From positions 1-33,635 of the IMG/VR virus record IMGVR_UViG_3300049728_000089: DNA of 33,635 bases, one strand, 5' to 3'. Under the pieces are notes generated by a model. The model saw nothing but the letters and a program-made list of their open reading frames with translations. It was not told where the DNA came from and searched no databases. Source of the stretch: a virus. Positions 12,322 to 33,587 of this stretch are shown piece after piece (position 1 is the stretch's first letter; every line of letters begins with the position of its first letter). The translations under genes were made by a program, and so were the position numbers.

Positions 12322-13377
12322 ATGGCAGACACCAGTCTTGCGCTAGTGAAGTCAGAAAACTTCGGCACCGTACCCTGTAACTTCTATCGGCAGGGTGAAG
12401 AAATAGTTATGACCCGCGAGCAGGTCGGCACAGCGCTTGGGCTAGCTGAACCCGCTATCGCCATTTCAAAAATCCACAACCGGCATAAAGACCGAATTGA
12501 CCGTTTTTCAGGGTTAACCAAATTGGTTACCCCTTCCGGCACGCAAGAAACTGTCGTATACAGTTATGATGGGATATTTGAGATCTGCCGATTCTCTCGC
12601 TCAAAGGTCGCTGACTCATTCATGGACTTCTGTCGGGAGATTACAAAATCCGTCTTTACCACAGGCCAGTATGTTCCGCAAACCATCCCCACCCCACCCG
12701 CGCTCGACTACAAAGCCAAGCGGCTAGAGATCCTGAACATGAACGCCGTCACCCGGCAAGCGAAGATGCTCAAGTCGATGATTCCCGACAATGCCCCTGC
12801 TGCCTATCGGCAAGTGGTGTATTCCAAAATCTCGCATATGATTACCGGCGAGCACCTTATCCCGTTACCGGCGATGACCGGGCGCGTCTATAGCGCGTCG
12901 GAGATTGGGCTACTGCTCGGTATATCGGCCACGATGGTTGGACGGCTAGCAAACCGCTATCACCTAAAAGCGCCTACCGGACAGCATAACGAGCATGGTG
13001 AGTGGATCTGGGACAAAGCGAAGCACGCTGATAAGCAAGTGCAAAGCTGGGTGTATAGCGAGGCGGGACTATCCCGCTTGCGTGAACTCATGCAAAGCGG
13101 TACTCCGGAGGCAGCGGTCATGCATGCCGAGCCGCCTGCGAACCTGTTAAGCACCTATAATGTCGCCAGTGTCCTCGGCACGACCTGGGAGAACGTTAAC
13201 GAGACCGCCGAACGGCTGCGGCTAAAATCCCCTGACCACGCAGTCGCCAACTGCTACGGGCAATGGCATCGCTGCCCACTCGCCAACGGTACCGGGGTAT
13301 GGTCATGGTATTTCAGCGAGCGCGGGGTAAACACCGTGCGCATAAACTTGCGAGGTGGGGAGCAGTTGACGATCTAG
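12322..13377 (+). CDS. Bro-N antirepressor with duplicated C-terminal domain
   Basis: This 351-residue protein starts at ATG 12322, 8 nt after GGAGG. Residues 1-115 form a Bro-N domain (NFYRQGEEIVMTREQVGTAL, then SYDGIFEICRFSRSK and FMDFCREI). Residues about 190-255 form an HTH-like unit (SASEIGLLLGISATMVGRLA, ending WVYSEAGLSRL). Residues about 277-340 form a related second unit (STYNVASVLGTTWENVNETA, ending WSWYFSERGVNTV). Bro-N proteins of phages act as antirepressors or DNA-binding regulators. The gene lies on the plus strand, opposite the structural genes, in an island with its own promoter and terminator. It probably takes part in switching gene expression, though its partner repressor is not seen here. 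Confidence 0.85.
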   Translation: MADTSLALVKSENFGTVPCNFYRQGEEIVMTREQVGTALGLAEPAIAISKIHNRHKDRIDRFSGLTKLVTPSGTQETVVYSYDGIFEICRFSRSKVADSFMDFCREITKSVFTTGQYVPQTIPTPPALDYKAKRLEILNMNAVTRQAKMLKSMIPDNAPAAYRQVVYSKISHMITGEHLIPLPAMTGRVYSASEIGLLLGISATMVGRLANRYHLKAPTGQHNEHGEWIWDKAKHADKQVQSWVYSEAGLSRLRELMQSGTPEAAVMHAEPPANLLSTYNVASVLGTTWENVNETAERLRLKSPDHAVANCYGQWHRCPLANGTGVWSWYFSERGVNTVRINLRGGEQLTI

Positions 13378-14124: not shown

Positions 14125-17100
14125 CTATCGCCGTGAAAGATCATTTAGCATGTCCACCACGGCGGCAAGTGACTTATTCACAACCTTGCCTTCCAGCCCG
14201 TCCGTGAGCGATATTTGGATGACGATGGGCTGCTTTTCTGCCGCCGCCGTGCTGGTAGACACTGGCTGCGTCATGCCGACAAGTGGCGAACTCATACCTT
14301 GCAACGGGATAGACGGCCCGTTATAGTAACGGCTTCCATCATAGCCCCCACCGCCCATAAGTGCGTTCTGTGTCAGCCCTTGACTGCGTAGCGCTGTGGT
14401 TGCCCCCTTGCTCCATTCGGTGCCGCGATAGCCTTGCAGGTTGCTAAAGAGGTTGACGTAGAAGTCGCGAGTTTTGTCCAACGAGTCTTTTTTGATGTCG
14501 AGGTCAATCTGCCAGGTCTGGCGCTGGTACTTGGACTCGATATCTTTGATTGCCGATTGATAGGGATCGAATATCGCCTTGTATTCGCGTTCATATTTCG
14601 CGCTTGTTTTGTCGGTTTCCGTATTGTCGAGGTCGGCCATTTGCTGGTCGAACTTCGTTTTTAGGCGTTCCAATTCATCCGCGCGGTTGCCCGGAAGTTC
14701 GGCTTTCTGCTCATTCAGTCCGAAGGTCTTCGTGCCCCAAATACTGTCCAGTAAACCGGCTTGCCCTTGCGCGTAGAAGTTCTTATCGGATAGTGAGCGT
14801 GAGCGATCTGCTTGCGCCATGTCTTCATCGGAGTGAGTCGCCATACGCTTATCGGTGGCAATAGCGATGGCCTCTAGCTGACTTTCCAGTAGCTCATCTC
14901 TGTGTTGCTTCTCGGTGTTGTAGACGTGATTCGCCGCGTTGATAGCAGCAGTCTTGCGAGCCTCAATTCTGCGCAACTCATCCCCATCATTGCGCAGAAT
15001 GGCGGCTTGACTGTCCGCATTGGCCTTATCCTGTGCGGCCCGAATAGCCGTATCACGTACCGCTGCCGAATCGATATCCTGCTCGCTGTTTGCCAAACGG
15101 AGCTTTTGCGCCGCGTCCCCCGCGAAGGCGTACTGCTGTTCAATGAGCGCCCGTTGCCCTTGCAGCTCCTCTTGACTAAAGCCGAACTGCAGACCGGACA
15201 TCTTGCTGTCGTTTTTTAATCCGGCGATACGCTCGGCGTTCTGTGCTATCCGCTCATTGATGAATGATTGCGTGGCGTCGTTGCTCATCGCCTGCGCTTT
15301 GCCGGCGTTATCATTGATGAGCTGCTGATCAAGCACCGCCTGCCGGGTTTTGCGCTCCTCGTCCCTGATCCATTTGTTATTAACGTTCGCCATCCCGGCG
15401 AGCTTGTCGGCCTCAATGCGTCGATCCCAGTCGAGTTCATCCTGTTTCGTGCCGATCATATCCGCGTAGCGTACGGACTCGCTCGCACTGTTCGCGTAGC
15501 CTGCCTGTATGCCGAGGTTGCGGAGGTCGTTGCCGCCTACGCTCTTATTCGCCGCAGCCTGCGTGGATTCAAGGGCAATCGCACGGACACCGGCGTTATA
15601 GCGCTCCTGCTCGTCCAGGATCTTCTTCTGCAGTTCGTAGCGGGCTTCGAGGTCGGCTTTCGCGATGGCCTGCGTGGCGTCAAGGTTGGCCTTATCCTTG
15701 GCGTAGGCGGCGTCCGCGTCCTTCTTCATCTGCTCGGCTTTACTGGTGTTCGCCTCCTTGGAGGCTTTAATATAGTCGGCATCGCGCGTGGCAATCTTCT
15801 CTTGTTGTGCGGCGAGCTGGTCAAGGGAGAGCTGCTGCATATCGCTATTCTTCTGGATATCCAGTTGCTCTTGCGCGGAAAGCGCCTGCTGCAATTTGCG
15901 CCGTTCGAGGTTGACGTTATGGGCGGCGATGTTCCAATCGGACGTATATTTAGCGACGTCTTCGGATTGGTGTTGATGGGCTTCTATCACCGCTTGCGCG
16001 TCGTCACCTAGCTGCCCATCACCGGGGTTTCCGCTCGCGTCTTTCACGGACTTATGTAGTTGCGCGGCCTGATTATCGGCGATGTCTTTCGCGAGCTTGG
16101 ATTGTGCGGACAAATACCCTGTATTACCGTTGAGTGTTTGCCGAGCAGCCTCCTCGTAAGTCTTCGCCTTGATAGTTCCATCAATGTTTGTTGAGGCGGG
16201 AAAGTTGTATGCCGAACCGATCTTGTTGAAACGTAGATAATTCCGACGGTCGCGCTCTATTTTTTCAATATCTGCGCGGTCCTGCTTGATACCAGCATCC
16301 CGTACCAGCTGTTCTGCCGTCGCCTGATCATTGGTGACCTTTACGGTTCCAGAAGCAAGAAGAGCTTGCCATTTCTCGGTGAGCGTTCCCACTTGCGGAA
16401 TTTGGATGCCGAGCACAGAAGAGATTTTCTGCATCTCCCCTTCAAGCATCCCTTTCACTTTGGTGAGGTCGCCCTGTGTTGCCCCTGCCTTGCTCGTAGA
16501 GGTGGAAAGACGGTCGTAGGCTTCTCCGACAGTTTTTAGGCTGTCGAGTTCTGACTTATGCGCTTCAACAACCATACCCGCCGCGTCTGCCGCTGCCTGT
16601 GCATGGTGTGCCTCTGCATCAATGGCATGATCCATCGCCGCGTTAATTCCGCCAATGACCGCCGGAACGGCCATTAGGGCCATGATGCCGATACCGACCG
16701 GGCCACCGAGGGCTGCTAATGCCCCGCCGCCCGCGACTTCCGCACCTGCGGCCCCTACCCCACCAGCAACACCTTTCGCACCTGCGCCTAATGCGGCAAT
16801 CCCTGCTTTTCCCGATGCCCCGGCTTGAATATTGAGCGCTTCGGCAGTGGCGAGGGCTTGCGCGGCCATTTCCCGCGAGGCGAGGATTTCCCGTGCCTCT
16901 TCCGTGGTGAGTTCCTGCGTGGCAAGGACGGCTCGTGCCTGCGCCGTGGTGAGTTCGGCATGAGCCCCGGCGTTGCGTGCCGCAGCTTCGGCAGATTCGT
17001 TGGCTGCTACTGCCTTACGGGTATTGCCTGCCGCAGCGGTGTTAATGACTACGGCTTCGGCGCGCTGTGCGGCAGTGCTTTCGCCATCGGCAAGCGTGGC

Positions 17101-18546
17101 CCGCATCACGTCGGCGGTGCGCTTCTCTTCGGCACGCGCGGCAATAAGGTTCTCTTGCGCAAGCAACTGTGTGGCCTGCGCGCTTTTCAGCTTTTCCGCC
17201 GCGCCCTGCTCATCGGCCAGACGGCTTTTAATGGTAGAGTCGGCGAATTGATTGGTAGAGAACGCACCCTGATAGCGACTATCGGCCTCGTTAAACAGTC
17301 CTTGTGGCCCCTTGCGGGCATTGCTAATATTTTGTCCAGCCGTGACGAAGTTGCCGAAGGTACCAGAGAGCCCCTTGTTAAAGTTCCCCGCCTGCATTTG
17401 CTGGGTGAGGGTAATAATCTTCCCGATACCGACCGAGACCGGAATCACCGCATTATTCACCAGCCCAAAGGCTACCGCGAGCTTCGCGACATTCATCGCC
17501 GCATCATTCTTCAAGAGCGGGGCGACCATCTTTTCAATGCTGGAAATCACTGGTACGGCATCCTTGGCAATTTTGATCAGTTCCTTGCCCAGTGGTTCCA
17601 GTGCGAGCGTGGTCTGATTTTTCAGTCGTTCGAGGTCAGCACCGAGGGTCTTGTCGATGAGCCCGCTTGCCGCGCCTTTGCTGTTGCCGATTTGCGCCTG
17701 CATGTCGGTGGTATCCAGCGCCCCGCGCTTAATGGCGTCGAACACATCACCCATGCCGCGAGCACCGAATCCCATGGTCTTCTTAAGGAAGTTTATTGCC
17801 CCTTCCTTGTTGCCAGATTGGGACATGACTTGTGCTTTTTCTAGATCCTTGCCAAATTGTGCCTCATCACCACTCTCGCCTTGAATCCCCATATTCATCG
17901 CCGCCATTACGCGGCCTGTACGAACTCCCTGAAGTTCAAAATTTGCCATAAGCGCGGTGGAGTGTTCGTAATTGTATCCCATCATACGCAGGGTTGCGCC
18001 GAATTCGTTCATCGTTCCCATCAATGAAGCGATAGGGGCACCAGAAGTTTGCGCTGCTTTGACGAGCGTATCCAGCCCTTCCGCGCCAACGCTCCATGAG
18101 TTCATGATCGCCGTGTAATCGTTAGCGAGCCCGTGGACTTCCCCGCCGTTCAACGCATGGCCCACTTTGAGCAGGTTATCGGTAAGCTCTTCTGCGGCTT
18201 TCCCGGTCAGCTTCGTGCGCTGCGTGACAAGCGAGAGAGAATCACCGATCTTGTCAAAGCCCTCCGTGGCATTGGGGGCAATCTGGTGCATCTGCTCGTT
18301 GAGTTCACCTAGCGCCTCGCCGGTCTTCCCGGTCTGGAACTCGATTTGCTGCAGGCTCTTGCCGATTTCCCCTGCCGCCGCCACCGCCGCCGCCGATACA
18401 CCCAACACGGACATTTCCAGCATGTCGAATTTGCTAGAGATAGGCCCGAGCATATCGCCCAGCCCGCCGAACATCCCTTTGGCCTTGTTAATGCCTTGCT
18501 CGGCCTCGCTGGTATCAAAGCCTAGTTTTGCTTGTACATCGGTCAT
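14125..18546 (-). CDS. Tail tape measure protein
   Basis: This 1,473-residue protein starts at ATG 18546, six nt after the stop of the frameshifted chaperone. The N-terminal region (residues 1-350) contains GINKAKGMFGGLGDMLG and MNSWSVGAEGLDTLVKAA, followed by GAPIASLMGTMNEFGATLRM, as in TP901-type tape measures. A hydrophobic Gly/Ala-rich block lies near residues 580-660. Long charged helical stretches rich in Ala, Glu, Lys and Gln (about 680-1370) would be coiled coil. The C-terminus has a Gly-rich turn and IVIQISLTDGLEG. It sets tail length and occupies the tail lumen. At about 1.5 angstrom per residue, the usual rule for tape measures, a tail near 0.2 micrometres is expected. No peptidase or lysozyme insert is evident. 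Confidence 0.92.
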   Translation of the reverse strand: MTDVQAKLGFDTSEAEQGINKAKGMFGGLGDMLGPISSKFDMLEMSVLGVSAAAVAAAGEIGKSLQQIEFQTGKTGEALGELNEQMHQIAPNATEGFDKIGDSLSLVTQRTKLTGKAAEELTDNLLKVGHALNGGEVHGLANDYTAIMNSWSVGAEGLDTLVKAAQTSGAPIASLMGTMNEFGATLRMMGYNYEHSTALMANFELQGVRTGRVMAAMNMGIQGESGDEAQFGKDLEKAQVMSQSGNKEGAINFLKKTMGFGARGMGDVFDAIKRGALDTTDMQAQIGNSKGAASGLIDKTLGADLERLKNQTTLALEPLGKELIKIAKDAVPVISSIEKMVAPLLKNDAAMNVAKLAVAFGLVNNAVIPVSVGIGKIITLTQQMQAGNFNKGLSGTFGNFVTAGQNISNARKGPQGLFNEADSRYQGAFSTNQFADSTIKSRLADEQGAAEKLKSAQATQLLAQENLIAARAEEKRTADVMRATLADGESTAAQRAEAVVINTAAAGNTRKAVAANESAEAAARNAGAHAELTTAQARAVLATQELTTEEAREILASREMAAQALATAEALNIQAGASGKAGIAALGAGAKGVAGGVGAAGAEVAGGGALAALGGPVGIGIMALMAVPAVIGGINAAMDHAIDAEAHHAQAAADAAGMVVEAHKSELDSLKTVGEAYDRLSTSTSKAGATQGDLTKVKGMLEGEMQKISSVLGIQIPQVGTLTEKWQALLASGTVKVTNDQATAEQLVRDAGIKQDRADIEKIERDRRNYLRFNKIGSAYNFPASTNIDGTIKAKTYEEAARQTLNGNTGYLSAQSKLAKDIADNQAAQLHKSVKDASGNPGDGQLGDDAQAVIEAHQHQSEDVAKYTSDWNIAAHNVNLERRKLQQALSAQEQLDIQKNSDMQQLSLDQLAAQQEKIATRDADYIKASKEANTSKAEQMKKDADAAYAKDKANLDATQAIAKADLEARYELQKKILDEQERYNAGVRAIALESTQAAANKSVGGNDLRNLGIQAGYANSASESVRYADMIGTKQDELDWDRRIEADKLAGMANVNNKWIRDEERKTRQAVLDQQLINDNAGKAQAMSNDATQSFINERIAQNAERIAGLKNDSKMSGLQFGFSQEELQGQRALIEQQYAFAGDAAQKLRLANSEQDIDSAAVRDTAIRAAQDKANADSQAAILRNDGDELRRIEARKTAAINAANHVYNTEKQHRDELLESQLEAIAIATDKRMATHSDEDMAQADRSRSLSDKNFYAQGQAGLLDSIWGTKTFGLNEQKAELPGNRADELERLKTKFDQQMADLDNTETDKTSAKYEREYKAIFDPYQSAIKDIESKYQRQTWQIDLDIKKDSLDKTRDFYVNLFSNLQGYRGTEWSKGATTALRSQGLTQNALMGGGGYDGSRYYNGPSIPLQGMSSPLVGMTQPVSTSTAAAEKQPIVIQISLTDGLEGKVVNKSLAAVVDMLNDLSRR

Positions 18547-18551
18547 GGGGT

Positions 18552-19171
18552 TTACTCCTGCACGGGGTGATTGGCTTCGGCAAGCGCCATGGCATTAGCG
18601 TACCAGGCATTCCACTCGGTATCGGTCATCGGCTTTCCGTTGCCGTCTGTGCGGTCATCCGGTGGGGTGTTTGCCCAGTTCTCGGCCTGCACCATGTCGT
18701 CGAGTTGTCGAAGGGTTATTGTCCAGAGGCTGTGCGGGTCGCGGATTTTGAGGTAGCCGTAGGCGAGCTTGCGGAGGATGGGCCACCATTTGCCGGTGGC
18801 GTCTGTGCGTTTTTTGCTGCATCCTCAATAGGTGAGTCGTCGGCGGTCGGGGTATCGCGGGCGGTTAACGCCCGGTAGAGGGCGCGCATATTTTCAAAGT
18901 TCGCCACCGCATCGGCATTCCCATCGAGGATCTTGGATTCTTCCCACAACCAGAGCTTCCGCTCACTGTTCGAGAGCAGCTTGATCTCTTGCGGCAGACT
19001 GTTGTGGATGACCGCCAGTGTGAAGGCGATTGTGTCGGACACCTTTGCCACGCCAACACCGAAGAGGATTGACGGCAGCCCCTTATCGGTCATTTCTTCC
19101 ATAAGTTCGACGGAGAACGGGGTCAAGGCGGCTTCGTAGGTTTTCCCATTCAGGGTGAGTAATGCGGGCAT
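18552..19171 (-). CDS. Tail assembly chaperone GT, product of -1 frameshift
   Basis: Translation begins with the G frame at ATG 19171, slips -1 at AAAAAAC (18815-18809) and continues to TAA at 18552. The result is 206 residues, 121 from the G frame plus 85 new ones. The extension begins RTDATGKWWPILRKLAYG and contains TDTEWNAWYANAMALAEAN. It has no start of its own but keeps clean codon use right up to the tape-measure start, as expected for the T part of lambda-like G/GT. The GT protein should bind the tape measure and recruit tail-tube subunits, and is absent from the finished tail. The slip signal is annotated separately. Confidence 0.88.
18716..19171 (-). CDS. Tail assembly chaperone G (unshifted product)
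   Basis: This 151-residue protein starts at ATG 19171, 7 nt after TTTGGAGG. The first 95 residues are compact (LTLNGKTYEAALTPFSVELM, then NSERKLWLWEESKILDGNAD). The tail after the slip site is low-complexity Ser/Ala/Thr/Pro (ASSPTATSKSATRTASG), which is typical of the unshifted end of such chaperones. It is placed between the tube and tape-measure genes. G and GT act together in tail assembly; most ribosomes should make this form. Confidence 0.88.
   Translation of the reverse strand: MPALLTLNGKTYEAALTPFSVELMEEMTDKGLPSILFGVGVAKVSDTIAFTLAVIHNSLPQEIKLLSNSERKLWLWEESKILDGNADAVANFENMRALYRALTARDTPTADDSPIEDAAKNAQTPPANGGPSSASSPTATSKSATRTASGQ
18782..18815 (-). promoter_or_regulatory. -1 programmed ribosomal frameshift signal
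   Basis: The slippery heptamer A-AAA-AAC occupies 18815-18809 and is in phase with the G reading frame. After an 8-nt spacer, GCCACC (18800-18795) pairs with GGTGGC (18787-18782) around a 7-nt loop, giving a stimulatory stem-loop at a suitable distance. The -1 frame downstream is open until just before the tape-measure start. Confidence 0.9.
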
Positions 19172-19268: not shown

Positions 19269-19751
19269 TTACGCCGGGAAAGTACCCGCGTAGGTCGCCG
19301 GAATACCACGGCGCACAATCGTCCACTCCATATCAGGGACGCCTTCCGTGCCGCCCTTCGTGGTGGTGACGCCCTTTACGTCAAAATAGGCGATAGTGGC
19401 GTTGCCGTCCGCTTCGACGACGACGAACTGCTTGCGCACCGCCATACCAGACAAGCCCTTGCAGGCGCGAATCGTGCCCAGCGAAGCGACCATCGCCGGA
19501 GTGGTGGCCGACGTCAGGAAGAGCTTGGCTGTGCATTTGTACGACTGCTTCTGCGCGGTAATCGCGCCATTCTCGTAGGCCGTGCCATCAGCACCCACGT
19601 CGGCAGAACTAAACCAGGTCTGCTCGACAGACTCGGAGTTCTCATCGATGGAGGTCGTGGGGACGAGGGAGAGGACGGGGGTAGATGCTCCGTCCGTCAG
19701 GTAGAGTTTGCGTAAGCCGTTAATGGCGGCTTGCTGTAGCGTTGAAGGCAT
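19269..19751 (-). CDS. Major tail tube protein
   Basis: This 160-residue protein starts at ATG 19751 with AAGGAG upstream. It has the expected length and position for a tube subunit, between the tail terminator and the chaperones. The sequence is rich in beta-strands and Thr/Ala (LYLTDGASTPVLSLVPTTS, then KQSYKCTAKLFLTSATTPAM) and ends with an EWTIVRRGIPATYAGTFPA segment. It would polymerise into the non-contractile tube around the tape measure. There is no additional Ig-like domain. The terminator directly behind it fits a highly expressed virion protein. Confidence 0.8.
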   Translation of the reverse strand: MPSTLQQAAINGLRKLYLTDGASTPVLSLVPTTSIDENSESVEQTWFSSADVGADGTAYENGAITAQKQSYKCTAKLFLTSATTPAMVASLGTIRACKGLSGMAVRKQFVVVEADGNATIAYFDVKGVTTTKGGTEGVPDMEWTIVRRGIPATYAGTFPA

Positions 19752-19760
19752 AGGGTCTCC

Positions 19761-20219
19761 TTATTGGATAGGGTGTAGGTTGCGAAGTCGCAGGTTGCAC
19801 ACGGCCTTGATGAGGTAGCCGCCGGTGATAGGGATGGATTCGACGTAGCCGAGGTAATGCACGGAGAGCGAGTAGGCCCCCCACGCGCCAAAGGTCAGAC
19901 CGGGATTCGCGGACGAGTCATCGTCAAACGGCTTGTAGGCGTCACGAATCGCGCGGCACTGCGCCTCTGCCGCGTCGATGGATGGTACGAGTTGCGCGTC
20001 GCCTAGCGCCGGGATATAGACCGCGATTTGTACCGGGTATTCTTCAAAGATGGCGCTGTCACGTCGGTCTATCGGCCCATAGGGACAGACGACCGTTTGG
20101 CGCATATCGCCGATAAGCTGATAGGGGCGAACTGTAAAGCCTCCTGACAGGTTCATCCCATCGGCGGCTTTAAAGTGCTCGAAAAAATCATGCAGCGGGT
20201 TAGTAGTCGGTGATATCAA
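19761..20219 (-). CDS. Tail terminator / tail completion protein
   Basis: This 152-residue protein has a TTG start at 20219, overlapping the glycosyltransferase stop by 20 nt; an ATG about 21 codons further in is a possible alternative. The first part is NPLHDFFEHFKAADGMN. Later there are PVQIAVYIPALGDAQL, a helix with AAEAQCRAIRDAYKPFDDD, and a final strand pair GGYLIKAVCNLRLRNLHP. Size, alternating alpha/beta pattern and position between the neck proteins and the tube fit a tail terminator (lambda gpU role). The terminator caps the tube and connects it to the head. Confidence 0.65.
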   Translation of the reverse strand: MISPTTNPLHDFFEHFKAADGMNLSGGFTVRPYQLIGDMRQTVVCPYGPIDRRDSAIFEEYPVQIAVYIPALGDAQLVPSIDAAEAQCRAIRDAYKPFDDDSSANPGLTFGAWGAYSLSVHYLGYVESIPITGGYLIKAVCNLRLRNLHPIQ

Positions 20220-21015
20220 AACGCATACCCCACAGTCGATAAGCGGCGCGCACGGCCTCCGGTAAGAAGCCCTCGGACATGACGTGTGCAGAGCGGATTG
20301 TCGTATCGATGAAGCGCGGGATGTTCAGCCGGGCGAGGTGCAGGCAGAACCCCACATCTTCGCCTGCCGAACCGTCAACCATATTTGCCTCATAGACGGC
20401 CGGTGAGTCAATCACGGTTTTATCAATGAGATAGGTGCCACAGGTCACATCAACGGGTGAGAGCTCGTCGAACTGATAGCCCTTCCATGCGCAATGGTTG
20501 CCAAAATAGTCAAAGACACCTGCGTTGATGTAGCCGCCGAGGAGTGGCGGGTAAATGCCAAGCTTACCGGTCCAGTGGCTGTCACAAAAGTTGATACTCC
20601 CCACCATGGGCTTCCCATGCGCCATGAGTCCGGGCACTAGGTCAGGGCGGAAGATGGTGTCGCTATCCACGGACAGCAGATACTCCGCGCCCCACTCTGC
20701 CGACTGCGCACGCAACAGGTTACGCATCATGCCGAGGTGGGCATAGACGGCCTGACGGTTCTGCGGGTCACGCGAAGAAGTGTTGTCGCCGATAGGGGTA
20801 ACCGGCGTAATACTAATGAGCGCGTACTCGTCGCGGTGGCGGTCGGCGAAGGCGCGCAGCATTTCAGTAGAGCCGTCTGTGCTGCCGTCGTCGGTGAAGA
20901 AGAGGGCGGTGTCCGCTTTCGGGTAATCGAGGGCGCGGATGGATTCTAGGTAGTAGGGGAGAATCCATGCGCGGTTTTTGATAGGGGCGTTAATGGCTAA
21001 TTTTGGTATTGACAT
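20200..21015 (-). CDS. GT2-like glycosyltransferase
   Basis: This 271-residue protein starts at ATG 21015, 4 nt after the stop of the gp10-like gene, behind GGGGAA. A GT-A fold is suggested by APIKNRAWILPYYLES near the N-terminus. A nucleotide-binding TDDGSTDGS follows (residues 41-49). LSVDSD at residues 114-119 supplies the metal-binding DxD-type site. Residues 218-220 (GED) and H244 are candidates for the catalytic and metal positions. It would transfer a sugar from a nucleotide-sugar donor. There is no TM segment, so it is cytosolic. Its location inside the head-tail gene block suggests it modifies a virion protein during assembly. Modification of host surface sugars or of DNA is the alternative. 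Confidence 0.85.
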   Translation of the reverse strand: MSIPKLAINAPIKNRAWILPYYLESIRALDYPKADTALFFTDDGSTDGSTEMLRAFADRHRDEYALISITPVTPIGDNTSSRDPQNRQAVYAHLGMMRNLLRAQSAEWGAEYLLSVDSDTIFRPDLVPGLMAHGKPMVGSINFCDSHWTGKLGIYPPLLGGYINAGVFDYFGNHCAWKGYQFDELSPVDVTCGTYLIDKTVIDSPAVYEANMVDGSAGEDVGFCLHLARLNIPRFIDTTIRSAHVMSEGFLPEAVRAAYRLWGMRFDITDY

Positions 21016-21019
21016 AAGT

Positions 21020-21391
21020 TTATTCCCCAAAGATCTCGTTAATAGCCCATTCTTTAATGCGGTTCAGCATATCTGCGTCGATTTGATTAACTGGGTCCTC
21101 GATGAATTTCGCCTTACTGCCAGCCTTGACAAAATGCTTGCCGACCGCCTCGTGTACCGCCGCCGCGTATTCACATCCGCGCGTCCCCACGGTCAGAATC
21201 GTGCCGTCAGCGTTCACCTCGGCAAAGAGCGAGGCTTCCAGTAGTCCGGTATCGTGCGGCACTTGGATGTGGATCTCGATGAGTAGCACTTGCCCAAGCT
21301 TTTGTAAGAACTTGATGCGGATTTCCGGTAACTTCGCCAGTGCCTTGTCGAGCCGGGCGTTTATTTTGGAGGTGTCAATCGTGAGACCCAT
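21020..21391 (-). CDS. HK97 gp10-like head-tail / minor tail protein
   Basis: This 123-residue protein starts at ATG 21391 with TTGGAG upstream, overlapping region with the previous stop at 21397; a TTG further upstream is a poorer start. The N-terminal helix has INARLDKALAKLPEIRIKFLQ. PHDTGLLEASL then matches the 'P-x-D-T-G-x-L-x-x-S' motif of HK97 gp10-like/minor tail proteins. The C-terminal part has RGCEYAAAVHEAVGKHF, with the expected Y-A-x-x-V/x-H core, and a final helix. It probably helps join heads and tails or complete the neck. Confidence 0.8.
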   Translation of the reverse strand: MGLTIDTSKINARLDKALAKLPEIRIKFLQKLGQVLLIEIHIQVPHDTGLLEASLFAEVNADGTILTVGTRGCEYAAAVHEAVGKHFVKAGSKAKFIEDPVNQIDADMLNRIKEWAINEIFGE

Positions 21392-21396
21392 AGTAG

Positions 21397-21759
21397 CTAC
21401 TCCAAATACACCAGACAACCGATAGCCTCACCGCCGAACCCCCTCCGCTCGTCAGTCGCCATCACCTTGTACGCCTTGCCGTCATACGTGACGGTATCCG
21501 GCTCATTAATGACCACGGAGGCGTCACAACGCACTACGGCGCTTGCGAGGGCGTAGGTGCCGTCTGCGAGCTTGACGCGGGTTTGCTTGTGGCTGAAAAA
21601 GACTTGTGCGGTGCGGCTCGTGCCTGCCAGTGGGCTATACGGATCATCGCTAGGCGAGGGCGTGGGCGGCGTGGTAATGGTGATGGTATGGGGCTTTAAT
21701 CCCGCCATCATATCAGCGCAGAGAGCTTGTGCGTGTAGAATGTCCCCGACAGAGAGCAT
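21397..21759 (-). CDS. Neck / head completion protein
   Basis: This 120-residue protein starts at ATG 21759 with a perfect AGGAGG 5 nt upstream. It starts MLSVGDILHAQALCADMMAG, then has a Pro/Ser-rich turn (TPPTPSPSDDPYSPLAG) and several strands. VFFSHKQTRVKLADGTY and VINEPDTVTYDGKAYKVMA are the clearest; the latter is typical of head-tail joining proteins in which a strand reports '(V/T)-x-Y-x-G-x-x-Y-x-V'. Order between the DUF4054-like connector and the gp10-like protein supports this. Function is inferred from pattern and position. Confidence 0.65.
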   Translation of the reverse strand: MLSVGDILHAQALCADMMAGLKPHTITITTPPTPSPSDDPYSPLAGTSRTAQVFFSHKQTRVKLADGTYALASAVVRCDASVVINEPDTVTYDGKAYKVMATDERRGFGGEAIGCLVYLE

Positions 21760-21767
21760 CGCGCCTC

Positions 21768-22211
21768 CTAAATGATAAAGGCCCCACCGAGGCCCATCAG
21801 CTTGGCTTCCGTGGCGAGGAGTCGCCCGTAGAGCGTCGCGTTCCACATGCCCCACGATTCAGTAATGAGCGCGGCATGATCCAGTGTCACACTCACCATC
21901 CCGTCAATCTTCTGCGAGGTAAGCAGTCCTCCCGGCAAACCGGATTTCACCGCGTCGTCAGTCGTGGTCGCATCGGGATTGTAGGCTTGCAGAAGCAGTG
22001 TGGCGTGATGAGCGATATACAGCCCGGCGGCATATTCCCACTTCACCCCCCAGCGCTCCTGCATGATGGCGGTGGTCGCGTGACTAATCAGCACGGTAAG
22101 CATCGTATCAGGCAACGCGGCGAACTGTGGAAACAGCCCGGTAAACATGGCGGCGGTGTAGGCGGGGTTCTCACTGGTGGTGGTATTCGCGGCGAGGGAT
22201 TGAATGGACAT
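21768..22211 (-). CDS. DUF4054-like head-tail connector
   Basis: This 147-residue protein starts at ATG 22211 with AGGGG upstream. FTGLFPQFAALPDTMLTVL is followed by a helical stretch (WGVKWEYAAGLYIAHHATLL), then a Gly-rich link (SGLPGGLLTSQKIDGMVSVT) and YGRLLATEAKLMGLGGAFI. This matches the DUF4054 family (PF13262) of small head-tail connectors found behind DUF2184-type capsid genes. It would form the ring docking on the portal. A run of nine G/C (22226-22234) lies in the leader of this gene. Confidence 0.8.
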   Translation of the reverse strand: MSIQSLAANTTTSENPAYTAAMFTGLFPQFAALPDTMLTVLISHATTAIMQERWGVKWEYAAGLYIAHHATLLLQAYNPDATTTDDAVKSGLPGGLLTSQKIDGMVSVTLDHAALITESWGMWNATLYGRLLATEAKLMGLGGAFII

Positions 22212-22258: not shown

Positions 22259-22531
22259 TTATTCAGCGGGGGCGTTTGCGGCGTCGGCATCGGCCTTGGC
22301 GGCGCGTTTGGCGGCGATGGCGGGTTGTTCCGCGTTAGCACTGGCAACGGCGGCATCTACCACCGCGTCCCGGCTACTGACGATGGCGGTGATGGATCGA
22401 TCAGCGCAGCCCCACTGGAAGAGGTCTGTCTGCTCGACCCACGCCGGGATCTCGCCAATATACAGGGCGGGGATGTTGAACTTCTCCCCGCCCGCGCTGA
22501 ACTCATACGCTTGCTTACTTTGAATGAACAT
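22259..22531 (-). CDS. Small protein between capsid and connector
   Basis: This 90-residue protein starts at ATG 22531 with AGGAGG 6 nt upstream; a longer reading from 22645 would enter the major capsid gene. It begins MFIQSKQAYEFSAGGEKFNI, then has PALYIGEIPAWVEQTDLFQW. The last third is Ala/Lys/Asp-rich (AIAAKRAAKADADAANAPAE). Similar short proteins with an N-terminal 'KAYEF..GG' strand and a charged tail often lie behind capsid genes. I cannot assign a function. A minor head protein or chaperone is plausible. Confidence 0.75.
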   Translation of the reverse strand: MFIQSKQAYEFSAGGEKFNIPALYIGEIPAWVEQTDLFQWGCADRSITAIVSSRDAVVDAAVASANAEQPAIAAKRAAKADADAANAPAE

Positions 22532-22547: not shown

Positions 22548-23582
22548 CTAGATACCATCCGCATAGCGCACGGTCGCGGTGTAGAAGAACTCCACCTGGG
22601 AGACATTCGCCATGTACACCGAGTCATAGGCGAGGGCGTCCACATTCGGCTGCGTCATGGTGCGAGCCAGCGGGACCAGCTCTTCCATGGCGATGAAGCG
22701 GTCGTTATGCACGTAGCAGACCATACGATCCGTCGAACCAGTGCCCGCCCCTGCACAATAGCGCGTCGCGGCAATTACGAGACTTCCGCCGTTCTGTGTG
22801 CTGATGTTGTTCTCCAATATGAAGGTCAGGATGGTCTTTTCTGCCAGCGTGGACACTTTCGTGGTCGCTAGGTAGTTGTACTGCGCGTAGGGCAGCAGGA
22901 TATGGTTCGGCAGTGCCGCGAGATCATACTCGGCTTGTGCCCAGGTGGCGGTGATGAGGCCGTTGACGTCGGCAAGGATCTCGTCCGGGGTCTTCGTTAC
23001 CCAGGTTTTCGCCGTGCCTGCCGCGTTGTTAGCGACTGCCGCCGCCGTAACAGCAGCGTTATTCACTAGGCCGGTCGTGCCATAGGCGGTCATACCGGTG
23101 TAGGTATTGGCGTCCATGTGCTTGTCGTAGGAGAGGCGAATACCATCGGTCAGCATCTTATCGAGCGACTGCCCGGTGACTTGCATGCGCTGCATGTCCA
23201 CAAAGCCGATGCGCATGACGGCGCTATAGACGTGCGAGCTGAAGATATCTTTGTTGAAGTTGGCCTGGATGACCGGTACACCCGTTGCCCCCGCAGCCGA
23301 GACGAGGCTATTGTCGCTGCCGCCGGAAATGCCGTAATCGATATTTAGCGCGGAAATGAACTCGACCCAACCGCCGCCAGTTTTCATCGGGATATCGCGG
23401 GGATAGGTCACGGAGGTGAGCGGCTGGCGTACCAGCGGGTCGCGTTTTTCCAGTTCGGAGGTGAGGAAGGCGTTGCCGTTAGCAATCGCCGCGTCATTCA
23501 TGCGGACCGGAGCCGCGCCGGAGCCAAGGCCAAAGCCGCCCGGGGTCACGATCCCACCGTTAATCGATGCGTTAATTTTCAT
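22548..23582 (-). CDS. Major capsid protein (DUF2184-like)
   Basis: This 344-residue protein starts at ATG 23582 with TTAAGGAG upstream. It includes FLTSELEKRDPLVRQPLTSV, YPRDIPMKTGGGWVEFISAL, a central FGTTGLVNN-like turn (YGTTGLVNNAAVTAAAVANN) and CYVHNDRFIAMEELVPLARTM. These are typical for the DUF2184 capsid family (PF09950), an HK97-fold group. It forms the icosahedral shell. It follows the decoration protein and the protease/scaffold gene in the expected order. No long N-terminal scaffold segment is present, which agrees with the scaffold-like region on the protease. Confidence 0.88.
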   Translation of the reverse strand: MKINASINGGIVTPGGFGLGSGAAPVRMNDAAIANGNAFLTSELEKRDPLVRQPLTSVTYPRDIPMKTGGGWVEFISALNIDYGISGGSDNSLVSAAGATGVPVIQANFNKDIFSSHVYSAVMRIGFVDMQRMQVTGQSLDKMLTDGIRLSYDKHMDANTYTGMTAYGTTGLVNNAAVTAAAVANNAAGTAKTWVTKTPDEILADVNGLITATWAQAEYDLAALPNHILLPYAQYNYLATTKVSTLAEKTILTFILENNISTQNGGSLVIAATRYCAGAGTGSTDRMVCYVHNDRFIAMEELVPLARTMTQPNVDALAYDSVYMANVSQVEFFYTATVRYADGI

Positions 23583-23596
23583 AATTCATGCGCTCC

Positions 23597-24106
23597 TTAA
23601 GCGTTGTTGCGGCCCTTGATGACCAGTTCGGCGACGTTGGACGCGTCTTTGGTAGTACGCCAGGCGCAGTTCGTCAGCGCGATAGTGTTGGTACTATCCG
23701 CAGCAGCCTCGAACCCGCCGACAACGCCGGTGGGAATGCTCGAATTCGCGACGATACGCACATATACTGCACCACCCGGGGCCGGAGTGCCCACGTTACA
23801 AATCACGGAGATCGCGCCGCGCTCAAAAGTGGCAACCGGTTCGCCGATGGCATAGGATCCGCCCGCGTTCTGGTTGGTGTAGGACGTGCCGACGGTCTTG
23901 ATCTCTTTCGATGCGACGCCGACGAAGGTTGCCAGCGTGCCGGTTGCGCCAAATAAAGCGACGGTGCCGTCACTCGCCAGCGTCAACGGATCACCGAAGG
24001 TGATGGCGGTGCTCGCCGGGAAGGTCTCGATGATCATGTCCGGCTGACGGGCATACGAACCCGCAAAGCCGTTTCGGAAGGATGCGCCAATTGTGGTACC
24101 AGGCAT
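23597..24106 (-). CDS. Capsid decoration / cement protein
   Basis: This 169-residue protein starts at ATG 24106, overlapping the protease stop (TAATG) and 6 nt after AAAGGAGG. It is Ala/Thr/Gly-rich with many predicted strands: FPASTAITFGDPLTLASDG, FVGVASKEIKTVG, SYAIGEPVATFERGAISV and TPAPGGAVYVRIVANS. This is the beta-barrel pattern of the structural cement proteins encoded between DUF2213 proteases and DUF2184 capsids. It would sit on the capsid surface and stabilise it. Confidence 0.8.
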   Translation of the reverse strand: MPGTTIGASFRNGFAGSYARQPDMIIETFPASTAITFGDPLTLASDGTVALFGATGTLATFVGVASKEIKTVGTSYTNQNAGGSYAIGEPVATFERGAISVICNVGTPAPGGAVYVRIVANSSIPTGVVGGFEAAADSTNTIALTNCAWRTTKDASNVAELVIKGRNNA

Positions 24107-27031: not shown

Positions 27032-28600
27032 CTACGAGCGGTCGTAATTGTCCTTGGGGTCGGCAACAGGCTGTGACGGTGGGCCAAAGACCGGACTGGC
27101 GATGGCATTAGCTTCCTCTTGCATCCCCGCGAAGGTGACGCCGGTGGCCGCAGCTATCTGTTCATCGGTGATGTTGGTAAACATGCCGGTGTCTTCGGCC
27201 ATTTCGCGCAGTTCCTTCATGGCCGTGCCCTTGTCAATGAGACCCACCTGCCAGACGTCAGATACCGCCTTTTCCTTGAATTCCGCAATGCGTGCCCGAT
27301 CGCTCACGTTCGCAGCGCGAATCGGATTAAAGACGTAATCGAGGTCGTCAGGGATTTCCCCCAGCGCACTCACCGCGAGAATCGGCAGCAGTTTGTCGAT
27401 GATAGGGCTTAAATCGGCTTCCTGCTTTTGCTCGATGTGGTCATAGTAGTTCTGCAGGTCGCCCTCGCCGGTGGAATTCAGCCCAGCCGGTGAGCGCCCG
27501 AAGAGCTTGGAAACGGGAATGTTCGCCGCCCCCGCCACATCGCACATGATATTATTGTAGACATCAGCAAGACCGGTGAAGGTGTACTGCCGCGTGTCGA
27601 ACTTATCGCCGCGATTGATGAGCTGCACACCGAAATTACTCTGCGCAATGCTCTGCGCCTGCATCATGGCCCAGAAGCGTTTTTGTGCATCCTGACTGCC
27701 CAAGCCATACATCTGGTCAAGCCCGTCGATTTCATAGACAGAGATATTCGCGCGGAAGGTGAGGGCGGCGATGTTCTCGGAGACGTTGTCGCGCTTGACG
27801 ATCTCGCTGTAAACGGATTCGATTTCCGACGCGCCCCATCCCAATTCTGCGACACTCTCCCAATAGGGCAACAGACGGCCCGCAAAGCGGATAAGGCGCG
27901 AATGATGCACGCGTTCCACGACTGTATCCGCGTCGTTGCGTACCTGGTAAAATTCCGGTAGGCCAAATTCCGGGTCGGCAATATCGCTGACGGTGTTGCC
28001 ATCGGGATAGAGGCCGCTCCACCGGTCCACGATATGCAAGCCGCGAAAGGTGCCGGGGAGGATGGTATTGAGGTCTAGCGGTTCGGCGAGCTGCTTCTCA
28101 TGGCCTTCGATAAGGATGAGTCCACCCGCGCCGCCGTACAGACGTCCCCATTTGAGGCCCTGCAGGATCTTGGCGCGCAGGCGAATGGACTTCTCGCACT
28201 TCTTAATCTTGTCGAGCTGCTCCGGGGAGGCTTGCGAGAGGATCTTGTACCAGTTCTTCGTCATGTCCTCGGGGATTTTATCGATGATGTTCTGCACAAT
28301 CCAGTTGCCGCGATAGAGGCTATTGAGCAGTTGGTAGTTCTGCGTCAGTCGGGTGAGCGGGTATTCGGTGGACTGCAGAAGGTTGGGGGTGTCAAAGCCG
28401 GTGCGTGCCGCCTGGTTGCTAAAGGCGTCGGTGGTGCGCACACTCATCGTCGGTTCGCACAACTCCACCGAGGCGTCATACCGCGCATTCTTCGCCGGGG
28501 TGAGGCTTCCGCGCTGCGGGATGATGGGGCTTGCATCGGCAACACGCGACGCGGGACGTTGGGGTTCGGTATGCTGTTTGTTGGTGCGTCGTCGTGTCAT
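27032..28600 (-). CDS. Portal protein (DUF1073-like)
   Basis: This 522-residue protein starts at ATG 28600 behind GGAGAATG. Recognisable features are FDTPNLLQSTEYPLTRLTQN, YRGNWIVQNIIDKIPEDMTK, GLKWGRLYGGAGGLILIEGH and PVSKLFGRSPAGLNSTGEGD, with ENYYDHIEQKQE-like YYDHIEQKQEADLSP following. They match the DUF1073/HI1409-type portal family. The portal forms the dodecameric vertex ring through which DNA enters and leaves. It follows the large terminase directly and precedes the minor capsid gene. Length is normal for the family. Confidence 0.9.
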   Translation of the reverse strand: MTRRRTNKQHTEPQRPASRVADASPIIPQRGSLTPAKNARYDASVELCEPTMSVRTTDAFSNQAARTGFDTPNLLQSTEYPLTRLTQNYQLLNSLYRGNWIVQNIIDKIPEDMTKNWYKILSQASPEQLDKIKKCEKSIRLRAKILQGLKWGRLYGGAGGLILIEGHEKQLAEPLDLNTILPGTFRGLHIVDRWSGLYPDGNTVSDIADPEFGLPEFYQVRNDADTVVERVHHSRLIRFAGRLLPYWESVAELGWGASEIESVYSEIVKRDNVSENIAALTFRANISVYEIDGLDQMYGLGSQDAQKRFWAMMQAQSIAQSNFGVQLINRGDKFDTRQYTFTGLADVYNNIMCDVAGAANIPVSKLFGRSPAGLNSTGEGDLQNYYDHIEQKQEADLSPIIDKLLPILAVSALGEIPDDLDYVFNPIRAANVSDRARIAEFKEKAVSDVWQVGLIDKGTAMKELREMAEDTGMFTNITDEQIAAATGVTFAGMQEEANAIASPVFGPPSQPVADPKDNYDRS

Positions 28601-32313: not shown

Positions 32314-32970
32314 TTATGCCTGAAAAAACTGGCCGCTTGTACAATTACTAACCACTCTTCGCCCATACCTTGCCCATGGTTTGAGCAACATTTTTCTTGC
32401 AAGTGCAGGCGATAAAAAGAACGCGCCCTGCGTCTCGTAGCCATCAATAAATAACGCGATGTCCTTGTACGATTTCTTGAGATTGTTATAAACCGTATTC
32501 TTGCAGGTGCATTTACGAGCCGCTATATCCTCGGCACTCACGTTGTCGCGGTGGAATAATTCGATAATGTCGCGGTGATCCTCATCCTGTTTGGCTATCG
32601 CCGCCGCTATCGGCTCACACTTCACTGTAAGCTCATTAAGCCGTTGCTGCTTGTCATTCTTTACCTGCTGTAGATCGCGTATTCCTTGACGCACAGCATT
32701 GATACCACGTTGCTGTTCAAGCTCTATCTGTGCGAACGCCGCCCCTGTGGGGTCGCTTACAGTTCCCCCTCCACGCCCCACATCCCCCTCATACGACGCG
32801 ATACCCTGTGACTTCATATCTTCATAATGAGCGACAATAAGCACCTCTTCCCCATGTTTATCGCTAATAAGGCCATTCAGCGACGAGATTTGACGCGGGA
32901 GGCTGGCGAGTATCTCAAGATCAATATAATATTGCGTTAGTGCTTCGGAGATAGGGTACTGTTCGCTCAC
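32314..32970 (-). CDS. ArpU-like / sigma region 4-like phage regulator
   Basis: This 218-residue protein has a GTG start at 32970 that overlaps the stop of the HNH gene (GTGA) and is preceded by AGGAGG. Residues 1-60 are helical, then a GRGGGTVSDPTGAAFAQIEL turn occurs, which is reminiscent of ArpU/RinA-type late regulators. Residues 85-125 are coiled-coil-like. Residues 133-170 form an HTH similar to sigma-70 region 4 (DIIELFHRDNVSAEDIAARK, then NTVYNNLKKSY). Position just upstream of the terminase operon fits a late-gene transcription activator. The basic C-terminal tail is unusual. Confidence 0.72.
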   Translation of the reverse strand: MSEQYPISEALTQYYIDLEILASLPRQISSLNGLISDKHGEEVLIVAHYEDMKSQGIASYEGDVGRGGGTVSDPTGAAFAQIELEQQRGINAVRQGIRDLQQVKNDKQQRLNELTVKCEPIAAAIAKQDEDHRDIIELFHRDNVSAEDIAARKCTCKNTVYNNLKKSYKDIALFIDGYETQGAFFLSPALARKMLLKPWARYGRRVVSNCTSGQFFQA

Positions 32971-33587
32971 TCCGGGCCTCCTTTAGTTTGTGGAACAAAC
33001 TTATATTTCTTCAGGTATTCAAACGCGAGGGCAACAATGTTGGGGCTATCACGCAAGAAACCTATCCCCGTATTACATCTTGAGCAAAGCAATCCTCTAA
33101 CTTCTCCCGTTTCGTGATCGTGGTCTAGACAGGCTTTTGTTCTTTTAGACTTATCTTTCAAGCTGGTATATCCGTGTATTTCATCGCCACATATAGCGCA
33201 TTTACCGCCCTGGTCCCGTAAAATCTGTTCCTGCAGGAGAGGTGATATGCCATAATTTTTCTTCCGACTTTTCTTTGTTTTGCAGTCTTGGCAAAGACAA
33301 TTTCGGCGCTCGCTTACCGTATAACCATCCATAATTTGTGATAAATTCATGTAGAGATGATCCTTGGCCTTCCGATTATCGGTTATCGGGCGATTACATA
33401 AAGAGCAGTAACGATATCCGTTAGCCCTTACCTTATCGTATCTCTCAATACGTACTCCCAGGGGTGCAGCTTGCACTTTGCTGTAATTGCATTTTTCGCA
33501 GGTCGGAGCGTCTTTATCATTAGTTTCAAAGCAGTGCTGACAACGAGGACAAAACCAGCACGTCAATTTATTTACCAAATTGCCCAT
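32967..33587 (-). CDS. Endonuclease VII-type HNH protein with extra zinc sites
   Basis: This 206-residue protein starts at ATG 33587 behind AAGGGA. Zinc-binding pairs are C13-C16 and C30-C33 in the N-terminal ribbon, C61-C64 and C99-C102 in the middle, and C130-C133 with C168-C171 in the nuclease domain. The C-terminal domain has CLDHDHETGEVRGLLCSRCN, the hallmark of recombination endonuclease VII (T4 gp49-like). It may resolve branched DNA or nick during packaging. Related small HNH proteins near terminases help genome cutting. Lower GC than most of the window suggests recent acquisition. It is coupled to the next gene. Confidence 0.87.
   Translation of the reverse strand: MGNLVNKLTCWFCPRCQHCFETNDKDAPTCEKCNYSKVQAAPLGVRIERYDKVRANGYRYCSLCNRPITDNRKAKDHLYMNLSQIMDGYTVSERRNCLCQDCKTKKSRKKNYGISPLLQEQILRDQGGKCAICGDEIHGYTSLKDKSKRTKACLDHDHETGEVRGLLCSRCNTGIGFLRDSPNIVALAFEYLKKYKFVPQTKGGPE

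What the first reader, a model, noticed from the sequence alone, without database searches (positions are those of the whole stretch)
20200..21015. Glycosyltransferase embedded in the head-tail joining genes
Seen: a GT2-like enzyme (TDDGSTDGS, LSVDSD, GED) lies between the gp10-like and tail-terminator genes, with 4-nt spacing on one side and a 20-nt overlap on the other. Known: phage glycosyltransferases usually lie with DNA-modification or serotype-conversion genes. Inference: co-expression with late genes suggests glycosylation of a virion protein, possibly the Thr/Ser-rich tail or decoration proteins.
Basis: partly seen in the sequence, partly recalled or inferred. Interest (0 to 1): 0.6.

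Follow-up and report, generated by a model that had tools for sequence, protein, structure and literature searches.

The report
Sugar-transferring enzyme inside phage particle genes
This virus of bacteria carries an intact sugar-transferring enzyme gene in the middle of the genes that build its particle, and relatives show the same habit, which suggests (without proof) that it decorates its own particle with sugars as some mycobacterial phages are known to do.

Summary
Window 20200-21015 (minus strand) encodes a 271-aa soluble GT-A glycosyltransferase (Pfam PF00535, E 2.5e-6). It sits 4 nt after a Neck1/tail-completion gene and overlaps the next gene by 20 nt. Its predicted structure best matches the N-terminal domain of human collagen galactosyltransferase COLGALT1 (Z 26.5).

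The only close relative found, a 47.8-kb contig (G001), has a 60% identical gene in the same slot. Between its capsid and connector genes G001 carries three more sugar enzymes, including a pyruvyltransferase-like protein. One of them is a Che8-gp109-like transferase fused to the small protein that other phages encode separately next to the capsid gene. Distant members of the family lie in particle-gene modules of several unrelated phages. Mycobacteriophage Cluster J has the same layout (PMC3706429), and capsid and tail-tube glycosylation is reported for mycobacteriophages.

Best explanation (about 0.62): a late enzyme that adds sugar to a virion protein. The acceptor is unknown. The cement protein has a weak Ser/Thr excess; capsid and tail-tube C-termini show no Ser/Thr-rich tail. 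The window gene is a new member of a known kind; the fusion in G001 is the most unusual part.

The parts
20200..21015 (-). GT-A (GT2-like) glycosyltransferase, 271 aa, ATG start
   Evidence: Pfam PF00535 E 2.5e-6, Anp1 E 1.1e-5 but below its cut-off; AlphaFold2 model pLDDT 82.7, pTM 0.85; COLGALT1 N-terminal domain Z 26.5, rmsd 2.7, 252 aligned; 60% identical gene in the same slot of G001
20659..20667 (-). DxD motif (residues D117-S118-D119), predicted metal/nucleotide-sugar site
   Evidence: both Asp invariant in 8 family members
20356..20364 (-). GED of the GEDVGFC motif (residues 218-220), predicted catalytic region; with H244 (20284-20286)
   Evidence: G218-C224 and H244 invariant in 8 family members
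21020..21391 (-). Neck1 / tail-completion (gp10-like) gene directly upstream; ORF can open at TTG 21418
   Evidence: PHROG 5, E 4.2e-6; 4-nt gap to the transferase
21397..21768 (-). head-tail attachment/connector-like gene (ORF 21397-21855, true start uncertain)
   Evidence: PHROG 3881 E 0.0023; Phage_attach E 0.0012, below cut-off
21768..22211 (-). head-tail connector-type virion structural protein
   Evidence: PHROG 302, E 1.4e-19
22259..22531 (-). small conserved head-module protein; its homologue is fused to a glycosyltransferase in relative G001
   Evidence: 27-member alignment; family profile matches residues 237-285 of the G001 fusion, E 1.1e-7
22548..23582 (-). major capsid protein
   Evidence: PHROG 264, E 5.8e-60; 45 relatives
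23597..24106 (-). structural cement (decoration) protein; candidate acceptor
   Evidence: Pfam Phage_cement E 6.3e-19; Ser+Thr 0.195 against 0.134 (sd 0.021) in homologues
19761..20219 (-). gene downstream of the transferase, tail terminator by position only; overlaps it by 20 nt
   Evidence: no family match; homologue at the same place in G001
19269..19751 (-). major tail (tube) protein; candidate acceptor
   Evidence: G001 homologue matches PHROG 820 major tail protein, E 1.2e-4; position
18552..19171 (-). tail-assembly chaperone with a -1 frameshift extension, slippery A_AAA_AAC at 18809-18815
   Evidence: extension frame conserved in G001, with C_CCA_AAC at the same place
14125..18546 (-). 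tape measure protein
   Evidence: PHROG 991, E 7.5e-7

Best explanation
The gene encodes a soluble, metal-dependent GT-A glycosyltransferase made late, together with head-completion and tail proteins. It most likely moves a sugar from a host nucleotide-sugar onto a protein of the phage's own particle, or extends a glycan already there, before or during assembly. Shown here: the gene is intact, of GT-A type, conserved in its slot, and distant members lie in particle-gene modules of several unrelated phages. In the closest relative it belongs to a larger sugar-enzyme set in the head genes, one member being fused to a conserved head-module protein. Inferred: late expression (from tight same-strand packing), catalytic activity, that the acceptor is a virion protein, which protein (cement, capsid or tail tube are candidates), the sugar, and the benefit (masking, stability or adsorption).
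For: Fold and motifs: PF00535 above cut-off; invariant DxD, GEDVGFC and His; confident model; top structural match the N-terminal domain of COLGALT1, a protein-modifying enzyme (Z 26.5), then LH3 (22.5) and Mnn9 (22.4), all other listed entries at or below 18.6. No membrane segment. Conserved slot: connector - neck - transferase - tail terminator - tail tube - chaperone - tape measure in both the window and G001. G001 also has, between capsid and connector, PF13524 (E 2e-28), pyruvyltransferase PF04230 (E 2e-10) and a GT7C-like enzyme (E 1e-5). The last is homologous to Che8 gp109 (E about 1e-10 to 1e-11) and is fused to the small head-module protein (E 1.1e-7, no other copy in that genome). 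Distant family members: MCP-hyp-GT-tail tubular A and the same place in MW202462; MCP-GT in Mel-JY34; tail terminator-GT/MT-GT in L060; GT-head/tail adaptor in L064 and TerL-GT-portal in L065. Thibault gp11, after the capsid gene, is a distant homologue (hhalign 96.7%). Precedent: PMC3706429, PMC11600133, PMC12363180.
Against: No direct evidence of glycosylated virions, of expression timing or of activity. Only one close relative was found. Capsid and tail-tube C-termini show no Ser/Thr-rich tail. The best-studied virion transferases (Che8 gp108-110) lie outside the structural genes, so position is neither necessary nor sufficient. Some family members lie elsewhere: L059 on the opposite strand to its neighbours, L063 beside another transferase. 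How often any phage transferase falls in structural modules by chance was not measured. Other GT-A enzymes with cell-wall or glycan acceptors score only somewhat lower in structure.
Confidence: 0.62

Rival explanations
1. The enzyme modifies host surface glycan (LPS O-chain, capsule or teichoic acid) to block superinfection, as proposed for transferases of pelagimyophages and known for Gtr systems.
For: Weak PHROG 841 GtrB-like match (E 0.004). Structures of teichoic-acid transferases (TarP, TarS, RmlT) are in the match list at Z 17-18.6. The pelagimyophage paper proposes this role for transferases in a tail-fibre region (PMC7029224). Pyruvyltransferases such as G001's usually act on envelope polysaccharides (general knowledge).
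Against: No membrane segment as GtrB has, no GtrA/flippase-like neighbour, a slot among head-tail joining genes in two diverged genomes, and a fusion of another transferase to a head-module protein in G001.
Confidence: 0.17
2. An adaptively neutral or selfish insertion (moron) that tolerates this slot and has no virion role.
For: The capsid-connector gap is an insertion hot spot in relatives: an HNH-type protein in L034 and a 511-aa protein in L006/L007. The nearest relatives outside G001 lack the gene.
Against: 60% identity with all motifs intact between two contigs whose major tail proteins match only at E 4e-16. Tight spacing and gene overlap, and no separate promoter room.
Confidence: 0.12
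3. The enzyme glycosylates modified bases of the phage DNA.
For: Foldseek lists one TET-associated glycosyltransferase (phiRSL1) at rank 35. G001 encodes DNA methylase-like genes.
Against: No TET or hydroxymethylase among the ten G001 genes scanned; no match to such a Pfam family; position far from replication genes; structure closest to protein-modifying enzymes. The window lacks most of the early region, so a partner cannot be excluded there.
Confidence: 0.05

Closest known systems
Glycosyltransferase insertions between capsid and head-tail connector genes of Cluster J mycobacteriophages (Thibault, Omega; PMC3706429)
   Same: Several transferases inserted in the head-tail joining part of the structural operon. 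Thibault gp11, directly after the capsid gene, is a distant homologue (hhalign 96.7%).
   Different: Unrelated head and tail proteins. The window has one transferase, placed one step later, between neck and tail terminator. The paper left open whether targets are viral or host.
Che8 / Corndog virion-glycosylating loci (Freeman et al. 2023, read only through citing papers)
   Same: Phage-encoded transferases. G001's fused enzyme is homologous to Che8 gp109.
   Different: The Che8 genes lie at the right genome end. The window enzyme gave no significant phmmer match to Che8 gp108-110, and profile matches were weak.
Human COLGALT1, N-terminal glycosyltransferase domain
   Same: Best sequence match among solved structures (E 1.6e-6) and best structural match, over the whole protein (Z 26.5).
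   Different: 17% identity, only one of COLGALT1's two domains, and no collagen-like repeats in the window or G001.
Uncultured Manatee Spring phages (MW202711, MW202496, MW202462)
   Same: GEDVGFC-type transferase a gene after the capsid gene and before a tail tubular gene (unannotated in MW202462).
   Different: Different capsid and tail genes, shorter enzyme, about 30% identity to the L060 member used as query.

Membership tests
Glycosyltransferase family 2 / GT-A | Significant match to the Pfam GT2 model | tested here: met
   PF00535 28 bits against cut-off 23.3
Glycosyltransferase family 2 / GT-A | GT-A fold with a DxD motif | tested here: met
   Model pLDDT 82.7, pTM 0.85; the VIA-align rows are glycosyltransferase entries; D117xD119 invariant
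Glycosyltransferase family 2 / GT-A | Transferase activity with a nucleotide sugar | not testable with these tools
   needs purified enzyme
Phage virion-protein glycosyltransferases (Che8/Corndog type) | Homology to an experimentally implicated enzyme | tested here: inconclusive
   Window enzyme gives no significant match to Che8 gp108-110; the G001 companion matches Che8 gp109; Corndog was not found under the accession tried
Phage virion-protein glycosyltransferases (Che8/Corndog type) | Glycan on capsid or tail-tube subunits | not testable with these tools
   needs virion mass spectrometry
Structural-operon glycosyltransferase insertions (Cluster J type) | Transferase gene co-directional between capsid and tape measure genes | tested here: met
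GtrB serotype-conversion transferases | C-terminal membrane segments | tested here: not met
   maximum 19-residue Kyte-Doolittle mean 0.82
Phage DNA glycosyltransferases | Partner enzyme making hydroxylated bases | tested here: inconclusive
   none among ten G001 genes scanned; the window lacks most early genes
COLGALT1 / GT25 collagen galactosyltransferases | Two-domain enzyme acting on hydroxylysine of collagen repeats | tested here: not met
   single domain, aligned only to COLGALT1 residues 49-328; no collagen-like repeats

The most novel reading that the evidence does not exclude
These phages carry a glycan-building line inside the head operon, with at least one transferase held at the assembling particle by fusion to a head-module protein. 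They coat the virion with a multi-sugar, possibly pyruvylated glycan, outside the actinobacteriophages for which virion glycosylation is documented.
Probability: 0.25. Interest if true: 0.65.

Novelty: new member of a known kind. Interest (0 to 1): 0.42.

Why it matters
If true, virion glycosylation, so far shown by experiment for a few mycobacteriophages, would extend to unrelated environmental phages. The gene slot would then give a sequence signature for finding more. The fusion of a transferase to a head-module protein offers a direct, testable clue to how such enzymes find their acceptor, and to what sugar coats do for phages that do not face animal antibodies.

Tried and rejected
Direct searches of phages, viral contigs and genome contigs with the single protein found no relative; the relative came through the terminase gene, and a two-sequence alignment then reached distant members. 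Searches with the tail protein and tape measure found nothing in viral contigs. A collagen-like acceptor, suggested by the COLGALT1 match, was rejected: no Gly-X-Y runs beyond four units. A Ser/Thr-rich C-terminus of the gene before the tape measure was rejected as acceptor evidence: it is the short product of a frameshifting chaperone. The fold of the small head-module protein could not be identified. GtrB membership was rejected for lack of membrane segments. The key paper, Freeman et al. 2023, is not held and is cited only through papers that quote it. Corndog was not found under the accession tried.

Full report
Observation. The minus-strand ORF 20200-21015 starts with ATG, ends with TAA and encodes 271 aa. 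Pfam Glycos_transf_2 matches above its cut-off (E 2.5e-6). The best sequence match among solved structures is procollagen galactosyltransferase 1 (E 1.6e-6). The gene lies 4 nt after a Neck1/tail-completion gene (PHROG 5) and overlaps the next gene by 20 nt if that gene uses TTG 20219, a start consistent with the homologue in G001. The next gene is a tail terminator by position only.

Setting. Reading with the transcription direction, the window holds small and large terminase, portal, DUF2213 protein, structural cement protein (Phage_cement, E 6e-19), major capsid protein (PHROG 264), a small conserved protein, connector, attachment-like gene, neck, transferase, tail terminator, tail tube, tail-assembly chaperone, tape measure and tail tip genes. 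All lie on one strand. From cement to tail tube the junctions are short (-20 to 47 nt), so co-transcription is likely but not shown. The window is the whole of a 33.6-kb virus record and lacks most early genes.

Relatives. Single-sequence searches for the enzyme found nothing. The capsid gene has 45 relatives, but outside G001 these have other tail modules and no member of this transferase family in the stretches held. A terminase search found one true relative, IMGVR_UViG_3300025316_000002 (L047 = G001). It has a 60% identical transferase in the identical slot, followed by homologues of the tail terminator, tail tube, chaperone and tape measure.

The relative's sugar genes. Between capsid and connector G001 has three more genes: a PF13524 glycosyltransferase (E 1.9e-28), a polysaccharide pyruvyltransferase (PF04230, E 2.3e-10) and a GT7C-like enzyme (PF02709, E 1e-5). 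The last continues in frame into a copy of the small protein that other phages of the group encode separately right after the capsid gene: a profile of that family matches residues 237-285 with E 1.1e-7, and the genome has no other copy. The GT7C part is homologous to Che8 gp109 and Thibault gp16 (E about 1e-9 to 1e-11). In the jumbo phage Tunturi_5 homologues of the pyruvyltransferase and the GT7C enzyme are also neighbours, away from structural genes.

Distant family. A two-sequence alignment reached nine further contigs. Eight members compared share an invariant DxD, GEDVGFC and a C-terminal His. Contexts: after the tail terminator, beside a transferase-methyltransferase fusion (L060); before a head-tail adaptor (L064) and between terminase and portal (L065); one gene after the capsid gene in three Manatee Spring phages; after the capsid gene in Microcystis phage Mel-JY34; upstream of baseplate genes in cyanomyophages and L066. 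Exceptions are L059 and L063, and L062 is unclear. This is a tally of what searches returned, not a controlled frequency.

Structure. The AlphaFold2 model is good except residues 144-166. VIA-align gives COLGALT1 residues 49-328 at Z 26.5 (rmsd 2.7, 252 aligned), LH3 at 22.5 and Mnn9 at 22.4; all other listed entries are at or below 18.6. A shared fold does not show the acceptor.

Acceptor. The cement protein is Ser/Thr-rich relative to 33 homologues (0.195 against 0.134, sd 0.021), with G001 intermediate (0.169). This is weak. Capsid and tail-tube C-termini, the sites reported in mycobacteriophages (PMC12619734), have no Ser/Thr-rich tail here. No collagen-like repeats were found.

Literature. 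Cluster J mycobacteriophages carry 8-10 genes, several of them glycosyltransferases, between capsid and connector genes, with viral or host targets left open (PMC3706429). Citing papers report glycosylated capsid and tail tube in mycobacteriophages (PMC11600133; PMC12363180). Pelagimyophage authors instead favour host O-chain modification (PMC7029224).

Conclusion. Virion-protein glycosylation is the best explanation, at about 0.62, with acceptor, sugar and benefit open. The window gene is a new member of a known kind. The fused transferase in the relative is the most unusual element and the best handle for testing.

Noticed in passing
window 18809-18815 (-), gene 18552-19171: Canonical -1 frameshift site A_AAA_AAC in the tail-assembly chaperone gene before the tape measure. 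G001 has C_CCA_AAC at the same place, and the -1 frame extension (WWPxLRxLxYGYLKIRDP) is conserved.
   Followed up: yes
L056 7726-8592 (G001 27226-28092): Glycosyltransferase fused in frame to the small conserved head-module protein that is a separate gene in other phages.
   Followed up: yes
L006, L007, L034, L008, L012 between capsid and connector genes: The capsid-connector gap is an insertion hot spot: a 511-aa coiled-coil-like protein, an HNH-type protein and small unknown proteins in different relatives.
   Followed up: partly
window 12322-13377 (+): A Bro-N antirepressor-like gene (E 4e-4, below cut-off) on the opposite strand inside the tail gene block.
   Followed up: no
window 32967-33587 (-): Recombination endonuclease VII-type gene (E 1e-19) near the right end of the window, beyond the terminase genes.
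   Followed up: no
L073 5971-7709 (Tunturiibacter phage Tunturi_5): Neighbouring homologues of G001's pyruvyltransferase and GT7C-like enzyme in an acidobacterial jumbo phage, both annotated as galactosyl transferase.
   Followed up: partly
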